Shown here one piece after another: positions 16,299 to 55,334 of a stretch of DNA of 64,000 nucleotides. Made by a program: the position numbers and the translations under genes. Within the stretch, counting starts at the first letter, position 1, and every line of letters begins with the position of its first letter. The DNA comes from Palleronia sp. THAF1. Its GTDB lineage: Bacteria > Pseudomonadota > Alphaproteobacteria > Rhodobacterales > Rhodobacteraceae. The notes under the pieces are model-generated. The model did not search any database and was not told where the DNA came from. It was given only the letters and a program-made list of their open reading frames with translations. Location: the NCBI RefSeq assembly GCF_009363795.1, contig NZ_CP045420.1:1841001-1905000 (forward strand), in the 5' to 3' direction.

Positions 16299-17345
16299 TT
16301 GGGTCTTTTCCTTCTCCGACGCCTTGGCGTGATGATCCTGACGGCGCTGTGCCTGACGTTCGTCGTGTTCTTCCTGACGAACCTTTCGCCCAACCTTGAA
16401 AAACTTGCGAAGACGCAAGGAAATATGCGGATGACCGACGATGAGGTCGTCTCGTGGCTGGAAAACCGGGGCTACGACCGCAACGTCTTCGCGCGCTACG
16501 GCGAATGGCTGGGCGTCGTGCCGGGCTATGTGGTCGAACAGCCGGGCGGCTTTCGGGGGCGTTGCTTCGGTGAGGCGGACGAGGTTCCACCAGGTGCATC
16601 GACTTTCTGCGGCGTCGTGCAAGGCAACTGGGGCTTTTCGTCTGTCTTCCGCGAAGAGGTCGGCAGCATCATCGCCACGCGCCTTGGCCTGACCGCAAAG
16701 TTGATGGGCTTCGTCATGCTGCTGATGGTGCCTGCGGCGTTGATCATCGGCGTGCTGGCGGGGATGCGCGAAGGCTCTCGGCTGGATCGAGGGCTGTCGT
16801 CGGTGTCCATCGTATCCACGGCAACACCGGAATATGTGTCGGGCGTCATCTTCATCACCGTCTTCGCATCCAGCGCGGTAGGACTGCGCTGGTTCAAGGG
16901 CACCGCGACAGGTGCGATGGAGAACGCGACCTTCGAAAACTTCGCCCTGCCCGTCCTGACCATCGCGCTCTACGGCATCGGTTACATCGCCCGGATGACC
17001 CGCGCGTCCATGGCAGAGGTGATGACCCAACAGTACATCCGCACCGCGCGGCTGAAGGGCGTCAGCTTCCCCAAGGTTGTACTGAAGCACGCCCTTCGCA
17101 ATGCCCTGATCGCGCCCTTCACGGTGATCATGCTGCAATTCCCGTGGCTGCTAAACGGCGTAGTGATCGTAGAGACCCTGTTCAACTACAAAGGCTTCGG
17201 CTGGACGCTGGTGCAGGCCGCATCCAATAACGACATCGAACTGCTGCTGGCCGTATCCGTCGTGTCCGTCTTCGTCGTTCTGGTAACGCAGCTGATATCC
17301 GACATCGGCTACGTCTGGCTCAACCCGCGCATCAGCGTCACGTAA
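16299..17345 (+). CDS. ABC transporter permease, DppB type
   Basis: This inner membrane permease of 348 aa has six likely membrane segments. The first is MGLFLLRRLGVMILTALCLTF, typical of DppB/OppB. A periplasmic loop of about 100 residues between the first two segments contains two cysteines (GRCFGE and STFCGVV). The cytoplasmic EAA loop is around TRASMAEVMTQQYIRTARLKG. The start codon is TTG at 16299, preceded by GGAG, and no better start is in frame. It forms the translocation pore with the next gene. Confidence 0.92.
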   Translation: MGLFLLRRLGVMILTALCLTFVVFFLTNLSPNLEKLAKTQGNMRMTDDEVVSWLENRGYDRNVFARYGEWLGVVPGYVVEQPGGFRGRCFGEADEVPPGASTFCGVVQGNWGFSSVFREEVGSIIATRLGLTAKLMGFVMLLMVPAALIIGVLAGMREGSRLDRGLSSVSIVSTATPEYVSGVIFITVFASSAVGLRWFKGTATGAMENATFENFALPVLTIALYGIGYIARMTRASMAEVMTQQYIRTARLKGVSFPKVVLKHALRNALIAPFTVIMLQFPWLLNGVVIVETLFNYKGFGWTLVQAASNNDIELLLAVSVVSVFVVLVTQLISDIGYVWLNPRISVT

Positions 17346-17357
17346 GGAGGGAGCCGT

Positions 17358-18812
17358 ATGGAACCCCTGACATGGACCGGCGCGCTGGCGCCGTTGACCA
17401 CGATCCTCTTCACCGCATTCGCGGCGCTGATCATCCTGTTCGTCCTGCGCACTGTCGCGGGCCTGTTCCTGGCACCGGCCCCGCCGACGGCGCAAGCCGA
17501 TGGCACGTTGGTGGACGCACGCGGCCCGTTGGAGATGATCGACACCGCGATGTTCTTCGCGCTGCTGGCCGTGATCGGCACGTTGGCGTTGTTTATCTTG
17601 GGCGGCATCGCATTCGATACCGACGGCGGCATCATTGGCGGCATCATGCGCCGCCTCATGCCCGTGTGGATCGCACTCGCACTGACACTGGGACTATCCT
17701 ACGCGTTCAAGCGGCGGCTGGGCCTATACGGCAAGCTCTTCGACTCGACCATCGGCGTGATTGGCTTCGCGCTGGTGATGTTCTGGATATTCTGCGCAAT
17801 CTTCGTGTCCTTCGACCTGATCGCCACATACGATCCTTTAGGGCAGTCGGGTGCCATGAAGAACGAGCTGCCCGGAACACCCTACACCCGCATGATCGGC
17901 GACGTGGCCGACGGCGCATATGGCTACTACCTGCTGGGTGGCGATAATCTGGGGCGTGACGTGTTCAGCCGCATGATCGCAGGCTCATCCGTCGTGGTGC
18001 AAATCGCACCATTGGCAACGCTGTTCGCCTTCATGGTCGGCATCACGCTGGGCCTTCCGGCCGCTTATCAGGGCGGCAAGCTGGACACGGTGCTGACCTT
18101 CATTGCGAACCTGATCCTCGCCTTTCCGGTGATCCTGCTGTTCTACCTGCTGGTCACGCCGGAGATCGTGGCGACCGGCATCCCGACCTACATGGCCGCC
18201 GTCATGTTCCTGTTCCCGATCGCCTTCCTGACGATCCTGCTGAACGCACGCTACCACACGCGCCCCACCCTGCGACTAATCCTGCTGACAGCGGTGATCG
18301 GCGGGTTGGGCTGGCTGTACCTGTCGCTGATCTCAGAGCCGTTCGGCGTGTTCCGCATCCTGCCGAACGCGCTCGACCTGTTCGACGTGCCCGGCGGCAT
18401 CCTGATCGTCTTCGTCGCGGTCGTCTTCGTGAACGCGCCCACGGTGTTCCGCATCGTCCGGGGCATCGCTTTGGACATCAAGACCCGCGACTACGTGGCC
18501 GCCGCGCAGACCCGCGGAGAGGGCAAGTGGTACATCATGCTGTGGGAGATCCTGCCCAATGCGCGCGGACCACTGATCGTCGATTTCTGCCTGCGCGTGG
18601 GCTACACCACGATCCTTTTGGGCACGCTGGGCTTCTTCGGCCTTGGACTGCCGCCCGAAAGCCCCGACTGGGGATCGACGATCAACGACGGCCGCAAGCT
18701 GCTGGCCATCTACCCGCACCCCGCTTTGGCCCCGGCCCTCGCGCTGCTGTCGCTGGTGCTGGGCCTGAACCTGCTGGCGGACGGTCTGCGGGAAGAATCG
18801 CTGCGCGATTGA
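17358..18812 (+). CDS. ABC transporter permease, DppC type, with N-terminal membrane extension
   Basis: This is the second permease of the importer. At 484 aa it is about 180 residues longer than usual DppC proteins (near 300 aa). The first 170 residues hold extra hydrophobic segments (around 20-40, 60-85, 95-115 and 130-155) before the DppC-like core beginning near GDNLGRDVFSRM. Another insertion lies between residues 240 and 360 (TYMAAVMFLFPIAFLTILL and on). The EAA loop is at about 376-400. A strong AAGGAGG lies 6-8 bases before the ATG. Such enlarged DppC forms are unusual in the textbook family, and the function of the extra segments is unknown. Confidence 0.9.
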   Translation: MEPLTWTGALAPLTTILFTAFAALIILFVLRTVAGLFLAPAPPTAQADGTLVDARGPLEMIDTAMFFALLAVIGTLALFILGGIAFDTDGGIIGGIMRRLMPVWIALALTLGLSYAFKRRLGLYGKLFDSTIGVIGFALVMFWIFCAIFVSFDLIATYDPLGQSGAMKNELPGTPYTRMIGDVADGAYGYYLLGGDNLGRDVFSRMIAGSSVVVQIAPLATLFAFMVGITLGLPAAYQGGKLDTVLTFIANLILAFPVILLFYLLVTPEIVATGIPTYMAAVMFLFPIAFLTILLNARYHTRPTLRLILLTAVIGGLGWLYLSLISEPFGVFRILPNALDLFDVPGGILIVFVAVVFVNAPTVFRIVRGIALDIKTRDYVAAAQTRGEGKWYIMLWEILPNARGPLIVDFCLRVGYTTILLGTLGFFGLGLPPESPDWGSTINDGRKLLAIYPHPALAPALALLSLVLGLNLLADGLREESLRD

Positions 18813-18820
18813 TGATCTGC

Positions 18821-18867
18821 CCGGGGGCCAGCCCCCGGTCCCCCGAGGTATTTGTGGAACAGTGAAG
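18821..18867 (+). repeat. Intergenic hairpin-GGTATTT element, copy 1
   Basis: The stem CCGGGGG (18821-18827) / CCCCCGG (18832-18838) is followed by CCCCGAG, then GGTATTTGTGGAACAGTGAA and a final G. It lies between the second permease and the ATPase gene, and its end is three bases from the ATPase ATG, so the tail may double as ribosome site. It is nearly identical to the copy at 41375-41422. Confidence 0.7.
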
Positions 18868-18869
18868 AC

Positions 18870-20951
18870 ATGAGCGACGACACCCCGATCCTCGAGATCG
18901 AAAACCTTTCGATCAGCTTCTTCACCCGCCTGCGCGAGATCCCGGCGGTGATGGACTTTTCCTGCACCGTCCGGCCCGGAGAGGCGATGGGGCTGGTCGG
19001 AGAATCCGGCTGCGGCAAGTCCACCGTGGCGCTGGGCGTCATGCGCGATCTGGGCGTGAACGGGCGGATCGTGGGCGGCACCGTGCGCTACAAGGGGCGC
19101 GACATGGCGTCGATGTCGGATAGCGAGCTGCGCGACATTCGCGGGCGTGATATCGCGATGATCTACCAAGAGCCGATGGCTTCGCTGAACCCCGCGATGC
19201 GGGTGGGCGCGCAGCTGATGGAAGTACCCATCATCCACGAAGGCGTGTCGAAATCCGAAGCCCGCGCCCGTGCGCTGGAAGTGCTGACGGACGTGAAACT
19301 GCCCGATCCCGAGCGTGTGATGAGCGCCTATCCACACCAGCTGTCGGGCGGGCAGCAACAGCGCATCGTCATCGCGATGGCGCTGATGTCGAAGCCGTCG
19401 CTGTTGATCCTGGATGAACCAACGACTGCGCTTGATGTGACGGTTGAAGCCGCCGTTGTCGATCTGGTGAAGGGGCTTGGCGAGAAATACGGCACCTCGA
19501 TGCTGTTCATTTCTCACAACCTTGGTCTGGTTCTGGAAACCTGCGACCGGCTGTGCGTGATGTATTCGGGCGAAGCGGTCGAGACCGGCAACATCGCGGA
19601 TGTCTTCGACAAGATGCGCCATCCCTATACGCAGGCGCTGTTCCGCTCGATCCCGCTGCCCGGCGCGGACAAGAATGCCAAGCCGTTGGTCGCCATCCCC
19701 GGCAACTTCCCCCTGCCCCACGAGCGGCCCAAGGGCTGTAATTTCGGGCCGCGCTGCGACTACTTCGTATCCGGGCGCTGCGACGCCAAGGCGATCCCGA
19801 TGTTCGATGTAGAGGGCACAGCACGGCATGAGACCCGCTGCCTGCGCGCGGATGAAATCGACTGGTCGCGGCAGGAGTTGGGTGCCATCGAGACCACAGC
19901 GACCGAGCCCGGCGATGTCATCCTGCGTATGGAAGACGTGAAGAAATATTACGAGGTCAGCGCCTCGGCGCTCTTCAAGGGCGGTGAGCAACGGGTGGTG
20001 AAGGCCAACGAAGACCTGTCCTTCGACGCGCGCGAAGCCGAGACTCTGGCCATCGTGGGCGAATCGGGCTGTGGCAAGTCCACCTTCGCCAAAGTCCTGC
20101 TGGGGTTGGAGACGACGACCGCCGGTTCGATCACGTTGGACAACCGGGCCATCGGCGAGACGCCCATACAGGAACGCGACACGCAGACGGTGGCCGACGT
20201 GCAGATGGTGTTCCAAAACCCCTTCGACACGCTGAATCCCTCGATGACCGTGGGCCGCCAGATCATTCGCGCGCTGGAGGTCTTCAAGATCGGTAACTCG
20301 GTCGAAGAGCGGCGCGAGAAGATGCTGGACCTCCTCGATCTGGTGAAGCTGCCGCGTGAGTTCGCGGGTCGGATGCCGCGCCAGCTTTCGGGTGGGCAGA
20401 AGCAGCGCGTGGGCATTGCGCGCGCCTTCGCGGGTGGCGCGCGGGTCGTCGTAGCGGACGAGCCTGTCTCGGCGCTGGATGTGTCGGTGCAAGCGGCGGT
20501 GGCCGATCTGCTGATGGAAATACAGCGCACCCAGAAGACGACCCTGCTGTTCATCAGCCACGACCTGTCCATCGTGCGTTACCTGAGCGACCGCGTTCTG
20601 GTCATGTATCTGGGCCACGTGGTCGAGATCGGCGATACTGCCGACGTGTTCTCGCCCCCCTATCATCCTTATACAGAGGCATTGCTGTCTGCGGTGCCCA
20701 TCGCCGACACGCGGGTGAAGAAGAAGCACATCGTGCTTGAAGGCGACGTGCCATCGGCCATGGACCCACCCCCCGGTTGCCCGTTCCAGACGCGCTGCCG
20801 CTGGAAAAGCCAAGTGCCGGGCAACCTGTGCGAGACCGAGGTGCCGCCCATGGTACGGTTCGGCGAAGGTGGCGCGCACCAGATCAAGTGCCATCTGAGC
20901 CGCGAAGATCTGGAAGGCATGGAGCCTGTCATCACGCTGGCGGCAGAATAG
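18870..20951 (+). CDS. ABC transporter ATP-binding protein, DppD-DppF fusion
   Basis: This 693-aa protein joins two nucleotide-binding domains and supplies all ATPase function for the importer. Domain 1 has Walker A GESGCGKS at 44-51, LSGGQ at 158-162 and LLILDEP at 178-184. Domain 2 has Walker A GESGCGKS at 397-404, LSGGQ at 506-510 and ADEP at 529-532. Each half ends with an oligopeptide-transporter C-terminal motif containing cysteines (C290, C296 and C304 in the first; CPFQTRC and NLC in the second). The ATG at 18870 is preferred over an upstream TTG because MSDDTPILEIENLS is a normal start. Confidence 0.95.
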   Translation: MSDDTPILEIENLSISFFTRLREIPAVMDFSCTVRPGEAMGLVGESGCGKSTVALGVMRDLGVNGRIVGGTVRYKGRDMASMSDSELRDIRGRDIAMIYQEPMASLNPAMRVGAQLMEVPIIHEGVSKSEARARALEVLTDVKLPDPERVMSAYPHQLSGGQQQRIVIAMALMSKPSLLILDEPTTALDVTVEAAVVDLVKGLGEKYGTSMLFISHNLGLVLETCDRLCVMYSGEAVETGNIADVFDKMRHPYTQALFRSIPLPGADKNAKPLVAIPGNFPLPHERPKGCNFGPRCDYFVSGRCDAKAIPMFDVEGTARHETRCLRADEIDWSRQELGAIETTATEPGDVILRMEDVKKYYEVSASALFKGGEQRVVKANEDLSFDAREAETLAIVGESGCGKSTFAKVLLGLETTTAGSITLDNRAIGETPIQERDTQTVADVQMVFQNPFDTLNPSMTVGRQIIRALEVFKIGNSVEERREKMLDLLDLVKLPREFAGRMPRQLSGGQKQRVGIARAFAGGARVVVADEPVSALDVSVQAAVADLLMEIQRTQKTTLLFISHDLSIVRYLSDRVLVMYLGHVVEIGDTADVFSPPYHPYTEALLSAVPIADTRVKKKHIVLEGDVPSAMDPPPGCPFQTRCRWKSQVPGNLCETEVPPMVRFGEGGAHQIKCHLSREDLEGMEPVITLAAE

Positions 20952-38222: not shown

Positions 38223-38758
38223 ACGCGCGCCTCCTCGATGCGGACCATCATGGCCTCGGCATCGGACCAGCGGTCCAGCCGATAGGCCGGATCCTCGTCC
38301 AGATTGTGGTGGGCCGTGAAGCAGACCCCCTGCCCCATGAACCCGTCGAAATGTCGGGTATGGTCGTCGATCAGAACATCGGCGTTCAGGATGCTCTTGT
38401 CGCCGCAGAACACGAGGTTCAGCCGGTCGATGAACGGGAAGTGACGCTCCATCCAGGCGATCTTGTGGCTGCATGATGCGGGATATTCCATGGCGGCCGT
38501 CGCGATGAAGACCTCGTGTCGGTCTTGCAAAGCGCGCAACCCGTCCACCGCGCCATCCACCACAGGGGCGTTCGCGAATGGCAGACCCGTATGCATCACA
38601 CGCGCCATTTCAGTCGCGGTCGCCTCAGGCACCATGTCCTTGAATTCACGGCCCCGCGCGACCTCGCGGCTGATCTCGATGCCCATATCGGCCAGGATTC
38701 GCTGCTTCACGGCGGCGGTGTCGGCGATCACCTCGTCCATGTCGATGGCGATGCGCAT
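38219..38758 (-). CDS. HAD-type 5'(3')-deoxyribonucleotidase-like phosphatase
   Basis: This 179-aa HAD hydrolase has motif I DMDEV (Asp6, Asp8), a TAA motif II in [11 protein letters not shown], a lysine in [11 protein letters not shown] and the acidic motif IDDHTRHF. These match the NT5C/5'(3')-nucleotidase group that dephosphorylates deoxynucleoside or nucleoside monophosphates. It is inserted between purS and purQ with a one-base overlap to purS (TGATG) and an ATGA overlap to purQ. A role in nucleotide salvage or purine homeostasis is likely, but the exact substrate is not shown by sequence. Confidence 0.85.
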
Positions 38759-38988
38759 CACGGCATTTCCACGGTGTAGCTTTCGATCACCGTGTTCGCC
38801 AGAAGCCGCTCGCACATCTGTGCGACCTCGTCTTCCGTCGTGCCATCGGCCACGTCGAGCGCGATCACCTTGCCCTGCCGCACGCCGTTCACGCCGTCAA
38901 AGCCCATCGCCCCCAAGGCATGGCGGATCGCCTCGCCCTGCGGATCCAGAACGCCCTCCTTCAGCATCACGACAACACGAACCTTCAT
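38758..38988 (-). CDS. purS: Phosphoribosylformylglycinamidine synthase subunit PurS
   Basis: PurS is the 76-aa small subunit that bridges PurL and PurQ. The sequence begins MKVRVVVMLKEGVLDPQG and contains the family helix GEAIRHALGAMGF followed by VRQGKVIALDV. Length and motif match. It follows purC with a 48-base gap that holds a copy of the recurring GGTATTT element. Confidence 0.95.
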   Translation of the reverse strand: MKVRVVVMLKEGVLDPQGEAIRHALGAMGFDGVNGVRQGKVIALDVADGTTEDEVAQMCERLLANTVIESYTVEMP

Positions 38989-38996
38989 GGCGCCTA

Positions 38997-39020
38997 CCCT
39001 CTTTGCTTTCCTGAAATACC
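38997..39020 (-). repeat. Intergenic GGTATTT element, copy between purC and purS
   Basis: On the minus strand GGTATTTCAGGAAAGCAAAG (39020-39001) is followed by AGGG. It is co-directional with the operon and sits 9 bases before the purS ATG, where AGAGGG could act as ribosome site. No clear GC hairpin precedes it. Confidence 0.65.
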
Positions 39021-39036: not shown

Positions 39037-39798
39037 TCAGTTGATCAGCGTTGGCTTCGGCGCGTGGGTCACGTTGGACGGCAACACGCCAAGGCGACGG
39101 GCCACTTCGGTATAGGCGTCGGTCAGAGAGCCCAGATCCCGGCGGAACACGTCCTTGTCCAGCTTCTGGCCGCTTTCGATGTCCCACAGGCGGCACGAAT
39201 CGGGGCTGATCTCATCGGCCACGATCAGGCGCATGAAGTCATTGTCCCAGACGCGACCGATCTCGATCTTGAAGTCCACCAGCTTGATGCCGACGGCCAG
39301 CATCATGCCAGACATGAAATCGTTCACCCGCAGCGCCAGCGCCACCATGTCGTCCAGGTCACGTTGCTCGGCCCAGCCGAACGCCATGATATGCTCTTCC
39401 GACACCAGCGGATCGCCCAGCTTGTCGTCCTTCAGGCAGAATTCGACGATGGGACGCGGCAGAGCCGTACCCTCTTCGATCCCCAGACGCTTGGACAGCG
39501 ATCCGGCGGCGAAGTTGCGCACGATGACTTCCAGCGGGATGATCTCGACCTGGCGGATCAACTGCTCGCGCATGTTCAAGCGCTTGATGAAATGCGTCGG
39601 CACGCCGATCTGCGCGAGGCCGGTCATGAAGAACTCTGACAGGCGGTTGTTCAGCACACCCTTGCCCTCGATCGTCGCCTTCTTCTCGGCGTTGAAGGCG
39701 GTGGCGTCGTCCTTGAAATATTGTACCAAAGTGCCGGGCTCCGGACCCTCGTAGAGAATTTTCGCCTTGCCTTCGTAGACCTTGTTGCGCCGTGCCAT
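39037..39798 (-). CDS. purC: Phosphoribosylaminoimidazole-succinocarboxamide synthase
   Basis: PurC (SAICAR synthetase) joins CAIR and aspartate in purine synthesis. The 253-aa protein begins [20 protein letters not shown]. It has the signatures [11 protein letters not shown]-like ([20 protein letters not shown]) and [10 protein letters not shown] followed by [11 protein letters not shown]. The ATG at 39798 with AAAGGG upstream gives the family length. It heads the purC-purS-HAD-purQ operon and is divergent from the DUF1476 gene. Confidence 0.97.
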
Positions 39799-40344: not shown

Positions 40345-41361
40345 ATGCCCGACGCCCTGACGAAGATGCTTTCAACCCGCGACTGGATCCTCGCCGATGG
40401 CGCCACGGGCACCACGCTGTTCAACATGGGCCTGTCGTCCGGCGACAGCCCGGAGTTCTGGAACGTGGACCGCCCCGACGACATTCGCGCCCTGTATTCC
40501 GGGCCGGTGCAGTCCGGCTCTGACCTGTTCCTGACCAACACCTTCGGCGGCAACGCCGCGCGCTTGAAACTGCACGACGGTCAGGACCGCGTACGAGAGC
40601 TGAACCGCGCGGGCGCTGAACTGGGTCGCGAAGTGGCCGACACGGCCGGTCGTCCGATCATCGTGGCAGGCTCTATGGGTCCGACCGGCGAGGTCATGGC
40701 TCCGCTGGGCGCGCTGACCCATGAGCTGGCCGTCGAGATGTTTCACGAACAGGCAGAGGGCTTGAAGGAAGGCGGCGTTGACGTTCTTTGGGTCGAGACG
40801 ATCAGTGCCCCGGAAGAGTACCGCGCCGCTGCCGAGGCCGCTGCACTGGTGGATATGCCCTTCTGCGGCACCATGAGCTTCGACACCGCCGGACGCACGA
40901 TGATGGGCACGACCAGCGAAGAAATGGTCAAGATCGTCGGCAAGATGAAGCACGCCCCCCTGGCCTTCGGCGCAAACTGCGGCGTCGGCGCGTCCGATCT
41001 GCTGCGCACCGTTCTGGGTTTCATCGAGGCTGGCGCATCCCGCCCCGTCATCGCCAAGGGCAACGCAGGGATTCCCAAGTACGTCGACGGGCACATCCAC
41101 TACGACGGCACGCCAGAGGTCATGGCGAACTATGCCGAAATGGCGCGCAACTGCGGCGCGCGGATCATCGGCGGCTGCTGCGGCACGACGCCGGAGCATC
41201 TGACCGCGATGAAAGAGGCGCTGGAAACCCGCCCCAAGGGCGACGCGCCGACGCTGGAAGAGATCGGCGCGAAGCTGGGCGGATTCTCGTCCGCCAGTGA
41301 CGGCACCGGCGACCAAAGCGGCCAGCCCCAGCGCGAACGCCGCGGGCGTCGGCGCACCTGA
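40345..41361 (+). CDS. bmt: Homocysteine S-methyltransferase (betaine-homocysteine type; split methionine synthase component)
   Basis: This 338-aa protein contains the zinc-dependent homocysteine-binding TIM barrel. ADGATGTTLFNMG and NTFGGNAARL form the substrate site, and the zinc ligands are Cys212 (FGANCGVG) and Cys278/Cys279 (GGCCGTT). It lacks folate and B12 domains. In Rhodobacterales such proteins are annotated as betaine-homocysteine methyltransferase, and I recall reports that they act as the homocysteine module of a methionine synthase split into separate proteins. The B12-binding module lies 1.6 kb downstream. The C-terminal 30 residues are a disordered Gln/Arg tail. Confidence 0.92.
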   Translation: MPDALTKMLSTRDWILADGATGTTLFNMGLSSGDSPEFWNVDRPDDIRALYSGPVQSGSDLFLTNTFGGNAARLKLHDGQDRVRELNRAGAELGREVADTAGRPIIVAGSMGPTGEVMAPLGALTHELAVEMFHEQAEGLKEGGVDVLWVETISAPEEYRAAAEAAALVDMPFCGTMSFDTAGRTMMGTTSEEMVKIVGKMKHAPLAFGANCGVGASDLLRTVLGFIEAGASRPVIAKGNAGIPKYVDGHIHYDGTPEVMANYAEMARNCGARIIGGCCGTTPEHLTAMKEALETRPKGDAPTLEEIGAKLGGFSSASDGTGDQSGQPQRERRGRRRT

Positions 41362-41374
41362 GCGATTACAGAGC

Positions 41375-41422
41375 GAGGGGCTCTGCCCCTCACACTCCCC
41401 GAGGTATTTTCGGAACAGTGAA
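41375..41422 (+). repeat. Intergenic hairpin-GGTATTT element, copy between bmt and chorismate mutase
   Basis: The stem GAGGGGC (41375-41381) / GCCCCTC (41385-41391) leads to CCCCGAG, GGTATTTTCGGAACAGTGAA and a final G. From CCCCGAG onward it matches the 18821-18867 copy at all but two positions. It ends nine bases before the chorismate mutase ATG. Confidence 0.7.
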
Positions 41423-41431
41423 GGACAGGCG

Positions 41432-41746
41432 ATGAGCGACCGGCGCACGGCAAAAGAGTGCAGCAACATGTCCGAGCTGCGCGCCGCCATCGACAGTATC
41501 GACCGCGATCTGATCGAGTTGCTGGCCGAGCGGGTTGGTTATATCGACCGCGCGGCGCAGTTGAAGCCAGCCGAAGGTCTGCCCGCGCGGACGACGGATC
41601 GGATCGCTGCCGTCGTCGCGAATGTGCGTGCGTTGGCGGAGGATAAGGATCTCGATCCTGATCTGGCCGAACAGATCTGGCGGCTGTTCATAGAATGGGC
41701 CATTGTACGCGAAGAAAAGGTGCTGGGTCCGTCAGTCGAAGAGTGA
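41432..41746 (+). CDS. Chorismate mutase (AroQ type)
   Basis: This 104-aa helical protein begins with a short tail and then ELRAAIDSIDRDLIELLAER, the AroQ/CM_2 signature. A basic helix (RTTDRIAAVVANVRAL) and the C-terminal LAEQIWRLFIEWAIVREE follow. It converts chorismate to prephenate for Phe/Tyr synthesis; the closely related isochorismate-pyruvate lyase activity cannot be excluded. AAGGA precedes the ATG at 41432. Its last 15 bases overlap the end of the convergent radical-SAM gene. Confidence 0.9.
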   Translation: MSDRRTAKECSNMSELRAAIDSIDRDLIELLAERVGYIDRAAQLKPAEGLPARTTDRIAAVVANVRALAEDKDLDPDLAEQIWRLFIEWAIVREEKVLGPSVEE

Positions 41747-43888: not shown

Positions 43889-44514
43889 GTCTACCGGACG
43901 ATCACGCCCTGACCGAAGACGGTATCGCCCCGAACGGGCGGGGCCGCGTGCTGGTTTTGGCCTGCGGTGCGCTGGCGCGAGAGATCACCGCGCTGACGCG
44001 GCAAACTGGTTTGAGCCACGTGGATCTCGCCTGCCTGCCTGCCATTCTGCACAACACGCCCGCGCGCATCGTAACCGCGTTGCGCGCGGCGGTAGAGCGC
44101 CATCGCGAAGACTACGATACGATCCTGATCGGTTACGGCGACTGCGGCACCGGCGGCGAAATTGACGCGCTTTGTGCCGAATTGGGTCTGGACCGCTTGC
44201 CGGGCGCACACTGCTACGCGTTCTTCGAAGGCGTGGATGCGTTCGCCGCACGCGATGAGATCGACGCATTCTACCTGACGGATTTCCTCGCCCGTCAGTT
44301 CGACGCTTTCGTGACGCGCCCCCTTGGACTGGACCGTCACCCAGAGTTGCGGGACATGTATTTCGGGAACTACCGGAAGGTTGTCTTCATGGCGCAGACG
44401 GATGATGCGGTGCTGACTGAAAAAGCGAAAGCTGCCGCCGATGCGCTCGGCCTAGGCTTCGAGCGACGTTTCACGGGCTACGGCGATCTCGAAACGACGG
44501 TGACCGGGCTTTAG
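43885..44514 (+). CDS. DUF1638 protein
   Basis: This 209-aa protein matches the DUF1638 pattern: a VLACGALAREI strand, LPAILHNTPARI, then YGDCGTGGEIDALC with two conserved cysteines, and HCYAFFEG. From memory, DUF1638 genes often lie beside corrinoid proteins and methyltransferases, as here, so a role in corrinoid methyl transfer or its reactivation is plausible but unproven. The start is GTG at 43885, overlapping the 48-aa ORF. Its TAG overlaps the kdsA stop on the opposite strand. Confidence 0.85.
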   Translation: MSLPDDHALTEDGIAPNGRGRVLVLACGALAREITALTRQTGLSHVDLACLPAILHNTPARIVTALRAAVERHREDYDTILIGYGDCGTGGEIDALCAELGLDRLPGAHCYAFFEGVDAFAARDEIDAFYLTDFLARQFDAFVTRPLGLDRHPELRDMYFGNYRKVVFMAQTDDAVLTEKAKAAADALGLGFERRFTGYGDLETTVTGL

Positions 44515-45329
44515 CCCTGCTTCATCAGATCGTCGATGGCGCGCAGGCGTCCGATCAGGTCGCCCATCTGATCCACAGGGATCATGTTCGGGCCATCCGA
44601 CGGCGCATTGTCGGGGTCTTCATGCGTTTCGATGAACAGCGCCGACACGCCCACGGCGCAGGCCGCGCGGGCGAGCACCGGCGCGAACTGGCGTTGGCCG
44701 CCGCTGGTCGCGCCCTGCCCGCCGGGTTGTTGAACCGAGTGCGTGGCGTCGAAGACGACCGGGTAGCCCGTTTGCGCCATGATCGGCAGGCCACGGAAGT
44801 CGCTGACCAACGTATTGTAGCCAAAGCTGGTGCCACGGTCACACAGCATGATCCGCTCGTTTCCGGTCGACGCGATCTTGGTTGCCACATTCGCCATGTC
44901 CCAAGGTGCCAGAAACTGGCCCTTCTTGACGTTGATCGCCGCACCCGTCTCACCTGCCGCCAGCAGCAGGTCGGTCTGGCGGCACAGGAAGGCGGGGATC
45001 TGGATTACATCGCAGGCCTGTGCGGCCGGGCCGCAATGGTCGGGCAGATGCACGTCCGTCAGGGTCGGGCAGTCGAATTCCGCACCGATCTTCGACAGGA
45101 TGGACAGCCCTTCATCCATGCCAAGGCCCCGCGTGGACCCAAGCGAAGAGCGGTTGGCCTTGTCGTAACTGGCCTTGAAAATGAAGCGCGTACCCGTGGG
45201 CGCGCAGGCCTGCGCGATCCGCTCGGCCATCATGCGTGCGTGGTCCAGACTCTCCAGCTGGCACGGGCCGGTGATCAGGGCGAAAGGGTTGGCATCGCCG
45301 ACTTCGATATCGCGGATGGTGACGGTCAT
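44511..45329 (-). CDS. kdsA: 3-deoxy-8-phosphooctulonate synthase
   Basis: KdsA condenses arabinose 5-phosphate and PEP to KDO 8-phosphate for LPS core. The 272-aa protein has the family motifs ITGPCQLES, FKASYDKANRSS, VIQIPAFLCRQTDLL and VNVKKGQF-like (INVKKGQFLAPWDM). The Cys and Asn choices (ITGPCQ; IPAFLCRQTD) leave open the metal-dependent or metal-free class. The ATG at 45329 has AAGGG upstream and gives a family-length protein. It ends the GT-kdsD-kdsB-kdsA run. Confidence 0.96.
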   Translation of the reverse strand: MTVTIRDIEVGDANPFALITGPCQLESLDHARMMAERIAQACAPTGTRFIFKASYDKANRSSLGSTRGLGMDEGLSILSKIGAEFDCPTLTDVHLPDHCGPAAQACDVIQIPAFLCRQTDLLLAAGETGAAINVKKGQFLAPWDMANVATKIASTGNERIMLCDRGTSFGYNTLVSDFRGLPIMAQTGYPVVFDATHSVQQPGGQGATSGGQRQFAPVLARAACAVGVSALFIETHEDPDNAPSDGPNMIPVDQMGDLIGRLRAIDDLMKQG

Positions 45330-45350: not shown

Positions 45351-45373
45351 GGTATTTGCAAAAAGCAAAGAAG
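45351..45373 (+). repeat. Intergenic GGTATTT element, copy in reverse orientation between kdsB and kdsA
   Basis: On the plus strand, opposite to the kds genes, GGTATTTGCAAAAAGCAAAG is followed by AAG. It fills most of the 45-base gap between the kdsB stop and the kdsA start. Its orientation shows that the element is not just a co-directional ribosome site. Confidence 0.65.
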
Positions 45374-45374
45374 A

Positions 45375-46163
45375 TCAGTCGAGTTGGTCGATCACGCTTT
45401 CGATGCGCGGCACGTCTCCGGGATTGTTCAGCTCCCAGAAGACACGTCCGCGACCATCGACTTCGATACAGGCGACATGCCAGCCGTTCTCAAGAAAACG
45501 CAGCTGCTCCAGCCCCTCCAGACGTTCCAGCGGGCCTTCGGAAAGCTCGGCATAGGCGGCGAGCGCATCGCGCGTGTAGGCGTAGACGCCGACGTGGTGG
45601 AAGACGGGCACATTGTCGGGGTCCAGCTTGCCGGGGTCGACGAAGGGGATGACTTCCTTCGAGAAATAAAGCGCCTTGCCCCCCGTCCCGAACACCGCCG
45701 TAGTGCCGCCAACGCGGCCCTGTTTGCGATCCTCGATGAAATGGCCGTAGGTCGTGGCATCGCAGCGCAGCACCGGGGTGGCGACCGGCGTGCCGCCCTG
45801 CATCGCGTCGATCAACGCCTCGACGAACCATGGCGGGGTCAGAGGCGCGTCGCCCTGCAGGTTCACGATCACATCCGCGTCGATCTTCCCCGTCGCCACC
45901 GCCGCTGCACAACGCTCGGTGCCGTTGCGACAGCTTTCGGGGGTCATGATGACCGACGCACCGAAGCCGCGCGCGTGATCCGCGATCCGGTCGTCATCGG
46001 TGCAGACATGGATCGCATGGTCGCCCACGACCTTCTGCGCGGCATCCCACGTCAGCCGAATCAAGGACTTGCGCGTGCCGTCGGGCAGCGCCAGTTCCAC
46101 CAACGGCTTGCCCGGATACCGGGTCGATGCATAGCGGGCGGGGATCAGGATGGCTGCTTTCAT
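45375..46163 (-). CDS. kdsB: 3-deoxy-manno-octulosonate cytidylyltransferase
   Basis: KdsB activates KDO with CTP to CMP-KDO. The 262-aa protein starts ILIPARYASTRYPGKPL. It has VCTDDDRI, ESCRNGTERCAAA, VIVNLQGDAPLTPP and FHHVGVYAYTRDAL, all family motifs. Its ATG overlaps the kdsD stop as ATGA. Confidence 0.97.
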   Translation of the reverse strand: MKAAILIPARYASTRYPGKPLVELALPDGTRKSLIRLTWDAAQKVVGDHAIHVCTDDDRIADHARGFGASVIMTPESCRNGTERCAAAVATGKIDADVIVNLQGDAPLTPPWFVEALIDAMQGGTPVATPVLRCDATTYGHFIEDRKQGRVGGTTAVFGTGGKALYFSKEVIPFVDPGKLDPDNVPVFHHVGVYAYTRDALAAYAELSEGPLERLEGLEQLRFLENGWHVACIEVDGRGRVFWELNNPGDVPRIESVIDQLD

Positions 46164-50102: not shown

Positions 50103-50564
50103 ATGACCGACAGTGACCTGCGCCGCATCTTGAACCGCACGAAGACGATCGCCTGCGTTGGTGTTTCGGCGAATCCGGTGCGTCCCAGCTACTACGTGGC
50201 GCGCTACCTTTCGCTGAAGGGCTTCACCGTCCACCCCGTCAATCCCGGCCTTGCGGGGCAAACGCTGTTCGGACGCACCGTCGTCGGATCGCTGGCGGAT
50301 TTGCCGCCCGGCGTTCAAATGCTGGATATCTTCCGCCGCCCCGAACACGTGCCAGCCCTGGTGGACGAGGCGTTGGACGTCATGCCCGACCTTGAAACGG
50401 TCTGGATGCAGATCGGCGTCGTGCATGAAGAGGCCGCCGAGAAAGCCCGTGCACGTGGGCTGACCGTGGTGATAGATCGCTGCCCGAAGATCGAATACCA
50501 GCGCCTGTTCGGCGAATTGCGCATGGGCGGTTTCGCGACGGGCGTGATTTCGTCCAAGCTATAG
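50103..50564 (+). CDS. CoA-binding domain protein (YccU-like)
   Basis: This 153-aa single-domain Rossmann protein reads ILNRTKTIACVGVSANPVRPSYYVARYL, then GFTVHPVNPGLAG, ADLPPGVQMLDIFRRPE and WMQIGVVHEEAAEKARARG. It ends with VIDRCPKIEYQRL, the family's conserved CPKIEY motif. These small CoA-binding proteins resemble one domain of succinyl-CoA synthetase; their role is not established. The ATG at 50103 follows a strong terminator by 36 bases. Confidence 0.9.
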   Translation: MTDSDLRRILNRTKTIACVGVSANPVRPSYYVARYLSLKGFTVHPVNPGLAGQTLFGRTVVGSLADLPPGVQMLDIFRRPEHVPALVDEALDVMPDLETVWMQIGVVHEEAAEKARARGLTVVIDRCPKIEYQRLFGELRMGGFATGVISSKL

Positions 50565-50622
50565 GCCGCCGCTGCGCAAATGGCGCGGCGACGGCCAAGG
50601 GGGATTGCAGAAAAGCAAAGAG
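50564..50622 (+). repeat. Degenerate intergenic element between convergent genes
   Basis: A GC-rich imperfect stem (around 50565-50595) is followed by GGGGGATTGCAGAAAAGCAA and AGAG. The tail matches the GCAAAGAAG end of the recurring element, but the GTATTT core is lost (GATT only). It sits between the CoA-binding gene and a convergent lipoprotein gene. Confidence 0.45.
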
Positions 50623-51129
50623 CTACTGGCTGTAAAGCACGACCGTCGGGATATCGGTCAGCGGGATCTCCAGCAGGCGCATGGTCGACAGGGACAGCGT
50701 GGTGCCGCCCTCTCCCGGCCGCAGCTCTACCAGTCCGGTCTGACCGTTGGCGGGGTTCTCGACCCGGCCCGATTGCGTCGAGGATACAAGCGCCGTCTTC
50801 ACCCACAGGCCCCCTTCGGTCGGATCGCCCAGAGAGGCCGTGACCTCTCCCAGACGATTTCCACCTTCGGTCACCGATTGCGCGGCGGCCTTCTGCTCAT
50901 CCGTCACGGTATCCAGCGACGCGGCGGTGTTCGCCCCGGCGGCAGGCGGCGGTGCGGTGGTGACCATCGCAACCTCTTCCGGCGTTTCGGGCGCGGCAAC
51001 GGCCGGAGCGGGCGCTGGCGCGGCGGGGGCAGCATCGCCGCCACCGCGATTTGCAAGACCGGACAGCTGCGCACAGCCCCCCAGGGCGACGACAAGCGCG
51101 ATGGCGCTAATTGGGAATATACGTGTCAT
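50623..51129 (-). CDS. Putative lipoprotein
   Basis: This 168-aa protein has a signal peptide with the lipobox ALGGC (lipidated Cys19). Residues 30-70 are an Ala/Pro linker, and the C-terminal domain (about 85-168) has beta-rich segments: TEGGLWVKTALVS, GQTGLVELRPGEGGTTLSLSTMRLLEIPLTDIPTVVLY. I do not recognise the C-terminal domain. It lies between two convergent/divergent neighbours and is probably monocistronic. Confidence 0.8.
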   Translation of the reverse strand: MTRIFPISAIALVVALGGCAQLSGLANRGGGDAAPAAPAPAPAVAAPETPEEVAMVTTAPPPAAGANTAASLDTVTDEQKAAAQSVTEGGNRLGEVTASLGDPTEGGLWVKTALVSSTQSGRVENPANGQTGLVELRPGEGGTTLSLSTMRLLEIPLTDIPTVVLYSQ

Positions 51130-53507: not shown

Positions 53508-54572
53508 ATGCCAGAGCTGTTCGTTACCAACTACAACCCGCGCTACACCGGCGTTTCGGCCACGGCCGAACGCATGGCGCAAGCACATCTGGACCGCTAC
53601 GATCTGGCGCTGGTCGGCAAGCCGCTTCATGGCCTGCCCGATCCGATCTCACCCGCGCTGGCGCGCAAGCTGTCCCGCACGCCATCGAACGACCGCCCCT
53701 GCGCGGTCTGGCACGTGCGCCGCGACCCAGAGATGCTCTCGGCGATCTATGCCCGCGACGTGCTGCGCTTGCCGATCCGCACGGTCTTCACCTCGGCTGC
53801 CAAACACCGGCACAGTGCGTTCCCACGCTGGCTGATCTCAAAGATGGACGCGGTCATCGCGACCTCTCCCGAAGCGGCGGCGTTCTTCCCCGATGTGGCA
53901 GCCACGCTGCCTCATGGCATCGACCTTGGCCGCTTCTCTCCCGCGCCCGACCGTCGCGCGGCATGGGATGCGCTCGGATACGGCGGGTCAGAGGGCGTGG
54001 CCATCGTGGGACGCATCCGCGCGTCGAAAGGCACCGATGTCTTCGTCGACGCGATGTGCCGCGTCATGCCCGACCGGCCACGCATGCATGCGCTGGTGAT
54101 CGGACAGGCGCGCCCCGCTGACCGCGCTTTCGTCGAAGCACTGCATGCCCGTATCGCCGAGGCCGGCCTGACGGGCCGCTTCCACTTCCTTGGCGACACG
54201 CCCAACGATCAGGTGCGTCAAATCCTCCCCGCCCTTAGCCTTGTCGTGAACGTTGCCCGGTACGAGCCGTTCGGCGTTGTACCCGCCGAAGGCATGGCCA
54301 GCGGCACGCCCTTCGTCTGCTCGGACACGGGCTACTATCGTGCGTTTTCGGATGACGGCCGCTGCGGGCTGATTGTTCCGGTCGAGGATGCGCCGGCCAC
54401 CGCCGCAGCCGTATCCGAGCTGTTGGCCGACGCCGACCGATTGGAGGCGATGGGCCGCGCAGCGCGCGCCAAAGCCGAGGCGGATCATTCGATCCAGGCC
54501 GAAGCGGATGGCGCCGCAGAGATTTACGAGCGGCTCTGGGCCGGAGATGATCTGGCCGTCCATCGGGGGTAG
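53508..54572 (+). CDS. Glycosyltransferase family 4 protein
   Basis: This 354-aa GT-B enzyme has a short N-terminal domain starting ELFVTNYNPRYTGVSATAER and a GT4 C-terminal domain: AIVGRIRASKGTDVFVDAM, LGDTPNDQVRQILPALSLVVNVARYEPFGVVPAEGMASG with the E-x7-E motif, and a C-terminal helix. Following waaA, it probably adds a sugar to the LPS core (mannosyl- or glucosyltransferase-like), which is inference from position. Confidence 0.88.
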   Translation: MPELFVTNYNPRYTGVSATAERMAQAHLDRYDLALVGKPLHGLPDPISPALARKLSRTPSNDRPCAVWHVRRDPEMLSAIYARDVLRLPIRTVFTSAAKHRHSAFPRWLISKMDAVIATSPEAAAFFPDVAATLPHGIDLGRFSPAPDRRAAWDALGYGGSEGVAIVGRIRASKGTDVFVDAMCRVMPDRPRMHALVIGQARPADRAFVEALHARIAEAGLTGRFHFLGDTPNDQVRQILPALSLVVNVARYEPFGVVPAEGMASGTPFVCSDTGYYRAFSDDGRCGLIVPVEDAPATAAAVSELLADADRLEAMGRAARAKAEADHSIQAEADGAAEIYERLWAGDDLAVHRG

Positions 54573-54611
54573 CTGGCCGGGCGCCAGTGAGTATTTGGGA
54601 AAACAAAGAAG
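54573..54611 (+). repeat. Intergenic hairpin-GTATTT element, copy after the GT4 gene
   Basis: The stem CTGGC (54573-54577) / GCCAG (54583-54587) is followed by GAGTATTTGGGAAAACAAAG and AAG. It begins right at the GT4 stop and ends before the stop of the convergent GATase gene, so here it can only act at transcript ends. Confidence 0.65.
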
Positions 54612-54614
54612 GGA

Positions 54615-55334
54615 TCACCGCGCGAAGCGGTCCACGAAGTTGCGCAGAATGCGCGCGGCGTGGGGCGTCTCGATGCCGCTGACGCGGGCTTGCAGAGCGT
54701 CGGCCTCGGCAGCGTCGAAGTAGCCCCGATCCCGGTAGACGCCGATGCGCAGCGCAAAGCTGTCGCCGTTCGCCTCTGGGTGAAATTGCGTGGCATAGAC
54801 GTTGCTGCGGTAGCGGATCATCTGCACCGGACAGGCAGTGCCTTCGACAAGCAGTGTGGCGTCCGGCGGCACCTCTTGCGCGGCTTCCTTGTGGGCGACG
54901 AGGCCGGTGAACTGCTTGGGCACACCCTCCAGCAACGGATCGGCGCGGCCTTCTGGCGTAATGCCCAAGTCTGCGACCGAGATAGGCTCTGACCGGGCGC
55001 TTTTGTCCACCTGTCCTCCCAAAAACGCCGCCAGCGCGCCGACGCCGTAGCACAGGCCGAGGAAGGGTATGTCGCGCGCGCAGACCTGTTTCAGTATAGC
55101 TCGAGTCCGGTCGTTTATCGCAGCCTCCGCAGGCGTAGGGTCGGGATCGCTGACGCAGGCCGGGCCGCCGCCCATGATGATCGCGCGCACATCACTCAGC
55201 GATCCTGGATCGTCCTGTTCCAGACGCACGCGCCGCACATCGGTCGCGGTCAGCCCGCCGCGTGACAGGATCGCGCCGTATTCCTCGTCCGCCGCCTCAT
55301 CCTCTGGGCGGCATTGCAGCAAAAGGACCGTCAC
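54615..55334 (-). CDS. Class I glutamine amidotransferase (GuaA-like GATase domain)
   Basis: This 239-aa protein has the triad of class I glutaminases: Cys95 in FLGLCYGVGA, and His185 and Glu187 in QFHPEANGD. The IIMGGGPACVSDPD oxyanion region also fits. It is a stand-alone domain like those annotated GMP synthase-like, which often act as gamma-glutamyl hydrolases or in polyamine/amino-acid breakdown. The start is GTG at 55334, overlapping the M20 stop as GTGA. The specific substrate is unknown. Confidence 0.87.
   Translation of the reverse strand: MTVLLLQCRPEDEAADEEYGAILSRGGLTATDVRRVRLEQDDPGSLSDVRAIIMGGGPACVSDPDPTPAEAAINDRTRAILKQVCARDIPFLGLCYGVGALAAFLGGQVDKSARSEPISVADLGITPEGRADPLLEGVPKQFTGLVAHKEAAQEVPPDATLLVEGTACPVQMIRYRSNVYATQFHPEANGDSFALRIGVYRDRGYFDAAEADALQARVSGIETPHAARILRNFVDRFAR

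What the first reader, a model, noticed from the sequence alone, without database searches (positions are those of the whole stretch)
18821..18867. Recurring intergenic hairpin + GGTATTT + CAGTGAAG/CAAAGAAG element (at least six copies)
Seen directly: copies at 18821-18867(+), 38997-39020(-), 41375-41422(+), 45351-45373(+), 54573-54611(+) and a degenerate one ending 50622(+). The core aligns as GGTATTT, three variable bases, a purine run, then CAGTGAAG or CAAAGAAG. Three copies are preceded by a GC hairpin. The first and third listed copies share 25 of 27 bases although they separate unrelated genes. From memory I have seen similar strings between genes in other Rhodobacterales but know no name or function. 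The conserved tail after the hairpin suggests more than a terminator, for example an RNA-protein binding site or a processed 3' end.
Basis: partly seen in the sequence, partly recalled or inferred. Interest (0 to 1): 0.7.

Follow-up and report, generated by a model that had tools for sequence, protein, structure and literature searches.

The report
Rhodobacteraceae gene-end hairpin-plus-tail element
A short DNA word, a strong hairpin followed by TATTT, three loosely fixed bases and a purine-rich tail, is repeated up to about a hundred times per genome in one bacterial family, where it marks the ends of protein genes and most likely helps to end or seal their messages; no curated RNA family or paper seen here describes it.

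Summary
In 864 kb of this genome the motif gave 39 hits against 0 for the reversed pattern, and its words head the list of enriched intergenic 10-mers. A family-wide form occurs in 214 of 292 family genomes and in 3 of 285 genomes of other alphaproteobacterial families.

It has more anatomy than reported: a conserved G/C-run hairpin (112 of 118 named copies), an optional second hairpin, a second C-run usually as long as the first (41 of 55, 40 of 48, 110 of 124 and 31 of 33 copies in four sets), TATTT, three loosely constrained bases, and a tail with genome-specific dialects.

Copies sit at gene ends. Divergent gaps hold 1 of 35 placed copies. All 26 close pairs found face tail-to-tail. Copies also lie inside operons, are often reversed, and were not seen after 102 stable-RNA gene calls.

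Best reading: a family-specific mRNA 3'-end element, probably a (partial) terminator or 3'-sealing hairpin with an unusual conserved downstream tail. Termination is inferred, not shown. Beta and gamma copies share the tail grammar but lack the canonical hairpin.

The parts
18821..18867 (+). alpha copy 1, in the gap between an oligopeptide/dipeptide-type ABC permease gene (17358-18812) and an ABC ATPase gene (18870-20951); G-run 18823-18827, C-run 1 18832-18836, C-run 2 18840-18844, TATTT 18849-18853, free bases 18854-18856, tail 18857-18867
   Evidence: fold; neighbours; gene limits from the home-made gene caller
41375..41422 (+). alpha copy 2, between a homocysteine S-methyltransferase-family gene (40345-41361) and a chorismate mutase type II gene (41432-41746); G-run 41377-41380, C-run 1 41386-41389, C-run 2 41397-41400, tail ends 41422
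54573..54611 (+). beta copy between convergent genes (glycosyltransferase 53508-54572 + and glutamine amidotransferase 54615-55334 -); short hairpin CTGGC/GCCAG then TGAGTATTTGGGAAAACAAAGAAG
38997..39020 (-). gamma copy between purC (39037-39798 -) and purS (38758-38988 -), no strong hairpin
45351..45373 (+). gamma copy reversed relative to both flanking minus-strand genes (CTP_transf_3 gene 45375-46163 and DAHP_synth_1-family gene 44511-45329)
50565..50622 (+). degenerate gamma-like copy with a strong hairpin (GCCGCCGCTGCGC/GCGCGGCGACGGC) then GGGGGATTGCAGAAAAGCAAAGAG, between convergent genes 50103-50564 + and 50623-51129 -; not among the 39 hits

Best explanation
It is a Rhodobacteraceae-specific 3'-end element of protein-coding genes, working on the transcript of the gene upstream of the hairpin. 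Shown: the anatomy, the placement at gene ends with a preferred direction, the dialects, the family restriction. Inferred: as RNA polymerase leaves the gene, the G/C-run hairpin (and often a second hairpin) forms soon after the stop codon; polymerase pauses over the weak UAUUU stretch followed by three free bases; the G-run may then exchange its partner from C-run 1 to the usually equally long C-run 2, which lies closer to the UAUUU, and pull the RNA out; the purine-rich tail, which would lie in the downstream DNA held by the polymerase (or under a bound factor), sets how often release happens. The result is full termination between convergent genes and partial termination, or a sealed and stabilised upstream message, inside operons such as permease-ATPase and purC-purS.
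For: Gene-end placement: of 36 own-genome copies kept, 14 tandem forward, 10 tandem reversed, 10 convergent, 1 divergent, 1 at a stretch end, against 279 tandem, 43 convergent and 112 divergent gaps of 25-600 nt (copies were not limited to such gaps; divergent depletion Fisher P 4e-4, convergent over tandem P 0.007). Named set: 39 convergent, 33 tandem forward, 15 tandem reversed, 8 divergent, 8 in a called gene, 15 at a locus edge, of 118; forward over reversed in tandem P 0.013. Direction: 26 of 26 pairs closer than 300 bp are tail-to-tail, 15 in fetched loci (L257 and L258 are near-duplicates and come from IMG/VR contigs) and 11 among 50 listed copies of one genome (P 6e-8 for 25 of 25). 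Hairpin: 112 of 118 carry it, median 22.5 nt after the stop (n 76); its flanking two bases are complementary 1.93 of 2 against 1.04 when shuffled (54 copies). C-run 2 equals C-run 1 in 41 of 55 and 40 of 48 listed copies of two genomes, 110 of 124 copies of loci selected for a C-run of five or more, and 31 of 33 of the other loci, each above all 2000 shuffles (which corrects and splits). One pair of relatives changes two hairpin bases and keeps G-U pairs on the forward strand (L271 against L273). Strict hairpin-plus-T ends are rare here: 8 of 745 gene ends (2 of 745 in the control) against 17 of 745 with this element forward.
Against: TATTT is four U of five and in most copies lies several bases after the last strong stem, so it is not a textbook U-tract. 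Forced pairing with the distal C-run is better in only 4 of 47 and 12 of 54 copies, and when the three runs disagree C-run 2 follows C-run 1 (16) more than the G-run (7), with 9 following neither (156 copies), so partner exchange is not favoured over a repeat-copying origin. A test for G-U against A-C in imperfect stems did not point to the forward RNA (18 against 28, and much like shuffled sequence). Reversed copies are common (10 of 24 tandem in the own genome, where direction is not significant, P 0.54; 15 of 48 in the named set). Copies inside operons would damage downstream genes if they terminated fully. None of 42 tRNA calls, 30 RNase P RNA and 30 tmRNA genes is followed by one within 110 nt, though at about 2% per gene end only two or three would be expected. 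Beta and gamma copies lack the canonical hairpin. No RNA 3'-end data were available.
Confidence: 0.52

Rival explanations
1. A post-transcriptional 3' element rather than a terminator: the hairpins block 3' exonucleases and RTATTT is an RNase E cut site (consensus RN|WUU, recalled), so that the upstream message is trimmed to a stable hairpin end, as at intercistronic hairpins of photosynthesis operons (recalled).
For: RTATTT is invariant here by search design, but it fits the recalled RNase E preference; AU is enriched at mapped RNase E sites of Rhodobacter sphaeroides (passages of PMC6238624). Copies lie inside operons, and the hairpin begins soon after the stop codon.
Against: Only about 2% of mapped RNase E sites in R. 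sphaeroides lie in 3' UTRs (same passages). It does not explain the fixed tail, the three-base spacer or the tail-to-tail pairs.
Confidence: 0.2
2. A dispersed REP-like repeat: a small element family that copies itself (or is copied) into gene ends where it does least harm, with any regulatory effect secondary.
For: Conserved hairpin words GGGGGC(GCT/TCT)GCCCCC or GGGGGCCAGCCCCC across genera, genome-wide dialects, turnover and one inverted copy at an orthologous junction, reversed copies in tandem gaps, beta copies matching at many places of the own genome but at one place in one same-genus genome.
Against: No Y1/RAYT-type transposase gene in the own genome (25 of 30 genomes searched lack one). 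Copies identical elsewhere differ in the bases after TATTT, which simple recent copying would not give. Tail-to-tail direction in 26 of 26 pairs is not expected of neutral insertion.
Confidence: 0.2
3. A DNA-uptake-type word embedded in terminators, as in Neisseriaceae and Pasteurellaceae, with genus dialects.
For: Genome-wide dialects and location at gene ends.
Against: Density is about one per 24 kb (36 in 864 kb), far below the roughly one per kb recalled for uptake words; the hairpin is built from G- and C-runs, not from inverted copies of the tail; orientation is tied to genes.
Confidence: 0.04

Closest known systems
Intrinsic (Rho-independent) transcription terminator
   Same: GC-rich hairpin soon after the stop codon, followed by a U-containing stretch, mostly directional, at convergent and tandem gene ends
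   Different: U stretch is UAUUU, usually not abutting the stem; a second C-run of matched length and a conserved tail beyond the expected release zone; dialects by genome; not seen after 102 stable-RNA gene calls (weak)
REP/BIME elements (gammaproteobacteria; features recalled)
   Same: Dispersed short intergenic palindromes with a conserved flanking word, nearly absent between divergent genes
   Different: Tail is asymmetric and long; no Y1/RAYT transposase in this genome; close pairs all tail-to-tail
Uptake-signal terminators (DUS/USS; features recalled)
   Same: Genus dialects, location at gene ends
   Different: Much lower density; the hairpin is not made of the word itself
Rhodobacterales HRC-8-4 motif (passages of PMC8632094)
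   Same: Order-specific terminator-like stem with conserved bases, in 160 representatives
   Different: Described as located mainly between ccoNOQP and ccoGHIS, with a run of U and a conserved loop; not a genome-wide repeat with a downstream tail. Its sequence was not compared here
Intercistronic mRNA-stabilising hairpins (puf-type, recalled)
   Same: Hairpins inside operons of Rhodobacterales
   Different: This is a genome-wide repeated word with a fixed tail, not a single locus

Membership tests
Intrinsic terminator | GC-rich stem-loop at the 3' end of a transcription unit | tested here: met
   112 of 118 named copies have the G/C-run hairpin; gene-end context. Transcription-unit ends themselves are unknown
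Intrinsic terminator | U-rich tract directly after the stem | tested here: not met
   TATTT only, typically after C-run 2 and a four-base head; adjacent to a stem in the CCTCCGGCGGAGG subtype, in L271 and in the fold of window copy 1
Intrinsic terminator | directional action on the upstream gene | tested here: inconclusive
   placement only: 26 of 26 close pairs tail-to-tail, but 10 of 24 and 15 of 48 tandem copies reversed
Intrinsic terminator | RNA 3' ends map to the U tract | not testable with these tools
   no transcript-end data held
REP/BIME | dispersed extragenic palindrome in many copies | tested here: met
REP/BIME | co-resident RAYT (Y1) transposase | tested here: not met
   PF01797: no match in own genome; 5 of 30 genomes have one
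DNA uptake word | about one copy per kb (recalled) | tested here: not met
   36 copies in 864 kb
DNA uptake word | uptake bias | not testable with these tools
   needs transformation assays
Any Rfam family | match at gathering score over the element | tested here: not met
   window: one match, elsewhere; 18 of the 117 named loci searched: none

The most novel reading that the evidence does not exclude
A distinct class of bacterial 3'-end signal: a one-G-run, two-C-run partner-exchange hairpin that drives release at UAUUU plus three free bases, made effective by a downstream DNA tail that is read by polymerase or by a dedicated, co-evolving factor; the tail dialects of each genus would record that co-evolution.
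Probability: 0.22. Interest if true: 0.82.

Novelty: new variant of a known kind. Interest (0 to 1): 0.58.

Why it matters
By a strict hairpin-plus-T rule only 8 of 745 gene ends of the sampled genome look like classical intrinsic terminators, so how this GC-rich genome ends its messages is open. A common, mostly directional, family-specific gene-end word with a conserved part beyond the expected release point would give a handle on that question, could improve operon prediction in a widely sequenced marine and phototrophic family, and might expose a new termination or RNA-end factor.

Tried and rejected
Loop-type test: among 91 tetraloop stems no C(UNCG)G loop and no reverse-strand equivalent was found, so it told nothing about the strand. 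G-U against A-C in imperfect stems was dominated by chance mismatches in G/C-runs. RAYT mobilisation was dropped because the own genome has no Y1 match. A coding reading of beta copies (ATGAGTATTTGTGAA...) was considered and dropped: in the three copies with a called downstream start that I checked, the start is not in frame with that ATG (reasoned distances). A promoter reading was dropped because divergent gaps are nearly empty. A Shine-Dalgarno role of the tail may hold where a start codon follows at 5-11 nt (9 of 49 copies with a downstream same-strand start) but cannot explain convergent copies.

Literature: eight searches were answered; judged by title and start of abstract none listed a paper on this element, but most listed papers were not opened. 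A search for six of its literal words gave 16 papers, 15 listed, none on Rhodobacterales by title. PMC12306157, PMC2267715, PMC6238624, PMC8625941, PMC8632094 and PMC5107571 were seen as found passages only; PMC4824070 as listing abstract only. The library lacks most subscription papers.

Gene calls are from a home-made codon-model caller (retrained), so single context labels can be wrong; the divergent and in-gene labels in particular may include missed or false genes. The loci were selected for a C-run of five or more and for the tail, so their counts describe canonical copies only.

Full report
What was checked. The window lies at 1,841,001-1,905,000 of a 3.34 Mb genome in two contigs. A permissive scan of 864 kb of that genome (window plus 40 spaced 20-kb stretches, partly masked in places) gave 39 matches and none for the reversed pattern; one lies inside a called gene and two are identical over the printed stretch and look like copies of another repeat, leaving 36. 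Without any motif being given, the first 28 enriched intergenic 10-mers after a masked run are words of this element, such as AAAACAAAGA, CTTCATCGTT, CCCGAGGTAT, AAAGCAAAGA, TGAGTATTTG and CTGCCCCTCG; a few unrelated words follow further down.

Anatomy. In the family-wide form the order is: hairpin I (G-run of about 4-6, a short conserved loop, C-run 1), a hairpin II or a three-base linker, C-run 2, a four-base head such as GGAG, GGGA or GAGG, TATTT, three loosely constrained bases, and a purine-rich tail such as GCAAGATGAAGG, ACCAGAAGAAGG or GAACGATGAAG. The pattern did not ask for hairpin I, yet 112 of 118 copies have it, mostly as GGGGGCGCTGCCCCC, GGGGGCCAGCCCCC or GGGGGCTCTGCCCCC or one base longer. 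C-run 2 has the same length as C-run 1 in 41 of 55 listed copies of one genome (shuffled mean 19), 40 of 48 scorable of 50 listed copies of a second (20), 110 of 124 copies from loci selected for a C-run of five or more (64) and 31 of 33 copies from the other loci (19); no shuffle of 2000 reached the observed value in any set (which adds two strings missed and splits the 138 of 153). In a three-way count 124 of 156 have all runs equal; among the rest C-run 2 follows C-run 1 in 16, the G-run in 7, neither in 9. Where the linker is three bases (54 copies), the two bases flanking hairpin I on each side are complementary 1.93 of 2 against 1.04 after shuffling. Forced folding prefers the first C-run in most copies (distal better in 4 of 47 and 12 of 54), but for the first window copy the minimum-energy fold uses the second C-run and the head.

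Place and direction. Own-genome copies: 14 tandem forward, 10 tandem reversed, 10 convergent, 1 divergent, 1 at a stretch end (36), against 279 tandem, 43 convergent and 112 divergent gaps of 25-600 nt; divergent depletion P 4e-4, convergent over tandem P 0.007. They hold 118 copies: 39 convergent, 33 tandem forward, 15 tandem reversed, 8 divergent, 8 in a called gene, 15 at an edge. Forward over reversed is significant there (P 0.013) but not in the own genome (14 against 10, P 0.54). The clearest sign of direction is that pairs closer than 300 bp face tail-to-tail in 26 of 26 cases: 15 in fetched loci, of which L257 and L258 are near-duplicates from viral-contig records, and 11 in the 50 listed copies of one genome. 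The reading that each gene of a convergent pair has its own copy, hairpin first, is an inference from this. Reversed copies remain unexplained.

Distribution and dialects. The family form occurs in 214 of 292 genomes of the family, 96 of 112 genera, with reversed-pattern counts of zero in the rows, and in 3 of 285 genomes of other families of the class, once each. A narrower pattern gave 24 of 149 in the order (there a few reversed-pattern matches also occur) and one or two hits in 8 of 237 genomes outside the family (no more than its reversed control). Tails differ between genomes but are fairly uniform within one, for example GAGG with ACCAGAAGA in 44 of 55 listed copies of one genome, and two main linked head-tail types in another (GGAG with GCTC-type tails, GGGA with GCAAAATGA in 18 of 50). 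The three bases after TATTT vary even among copies that are otherwise identical, though they are not random: one genome uses TTG in 27 of 55. In 2.9 million viral contigs nine stretches matched the exact pattern.

Conservation at matching loci. At the 18812-18870 junction relatives show the element forward (L054, L055 with TACTT, L058 with AATTT, L059, L061), a forward copy in a longer gap (L064), the inverted element (L062), sequence without a recognisable intact element (L056, L060, L067, L068, L069; L067 has a tail-like remnant) or almost nothing (L057, L065, L066, L070); L063 could not be read. At purC-purS within the genus, 13 of 14 genomes could be read: forward elements in the own genome and in L267, L271, L272 (with TACTT), L273 and L277, none recognisable in the other seven. 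L271 and L273 differ by two hairpin bases that keep G-U pairs on the forward strand. Those two genomes are about 96-97% identical over most of 122 kb and share 3 of 3 copies found there. For the 54573 copy, eight of nine other loci could not be read across the junction and one has a short gap without it; beta-type sequence matches many places of the own genome and one place in one same-genus genome.

What it is not. No Rfam family matches at gathering score at the window copies or in 18 of the 117 named loci. The own genome has no Y1 transposase match. None of 42 ARAGORN tRNA calls (a few doubtful), 30 RNase P RNA and 30 tmRNA genes (30 of 61 genomes for each of the last two) is followed by a copy within 110 nt; with 17 of 745 gene ends carrying a forward copy in the own genome, two or three would be expected, so this is only suggestive. 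Strict hairpin-plus-T ends were found at 8 of 745 gene ends, 2 of 745 in the control.

How it most likely works. Placement after stop codons, preferred direction, structure conservation and scarcity of classical terminators make a 3'-end element for messages the best reading. Whether the end is made by polymerase release or by trimming to the hairpin is not decided. The equal C-runs allow the G-run to exchange partners toward TATTT, but copying between neighbouring direct repeats would give the same pattern. The tail is the strangest part: if RNA ends at or just after TATTT, the tail would be downstream DNA. Copies between the ABC permease and ATPase genes and between purC and purS argue for partial action. 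In a report known to me only by its abstract (PMC4824070), a terminator placed very close to a gene end lost function, so the closeness of hairpin I to the stop codon (median 22.5 nt) may couple the element to translation.

Literature. Eight answered searches showed no paper on it by title and abstract start; most were not opened. [quoted passage not shown] PMC8632094). Passages of PMC5107571 on Paracoccus sRNAs show no such motif. The open-access library is incomplete, so absence from print is not shown.

Odds.

Noticed in passing
window 16922-17101 (-): Rfam match RF02647 (Ruegeria cis52 sRNA), 106 bits, lying antisense inside a predicted plus-strand gene (16332-17345).
   Followed up: no
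L080:7762 and L094:6667: Two identical stretches of the own genome with a degenerate core match, perhaps copies of a mobile element or repeat.
   Followed up: no
genome G506, 11 convergent pairs: In 8 of 11 tail-to-tail pairs the two copies use different head classes (GGAG against GGGA), somewhat more than about 5 expected from their frequencies; could avoid long inverted repeats.
   Followed up: partly
window 45351-45373 and, elsewhere, 10 of 24 own-genome and 15 of 48 named tandem copies: Copies reversed relative to both neighbouring genes, often with the tail next to the stop codon; not explained by a simple terminator of the upstream gene.
   Followed up: partly
L257-L265: Nine IMG/VR contigs carry the element; may be host DNA flanking proviruses or true phage gene ends.
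   Followed up: no
own genome beta copies, e.g. window 54590: Beta-type sequence matches many places here but one place in one same-genus genome, suggesting recent local spread.
   Followed up: partly
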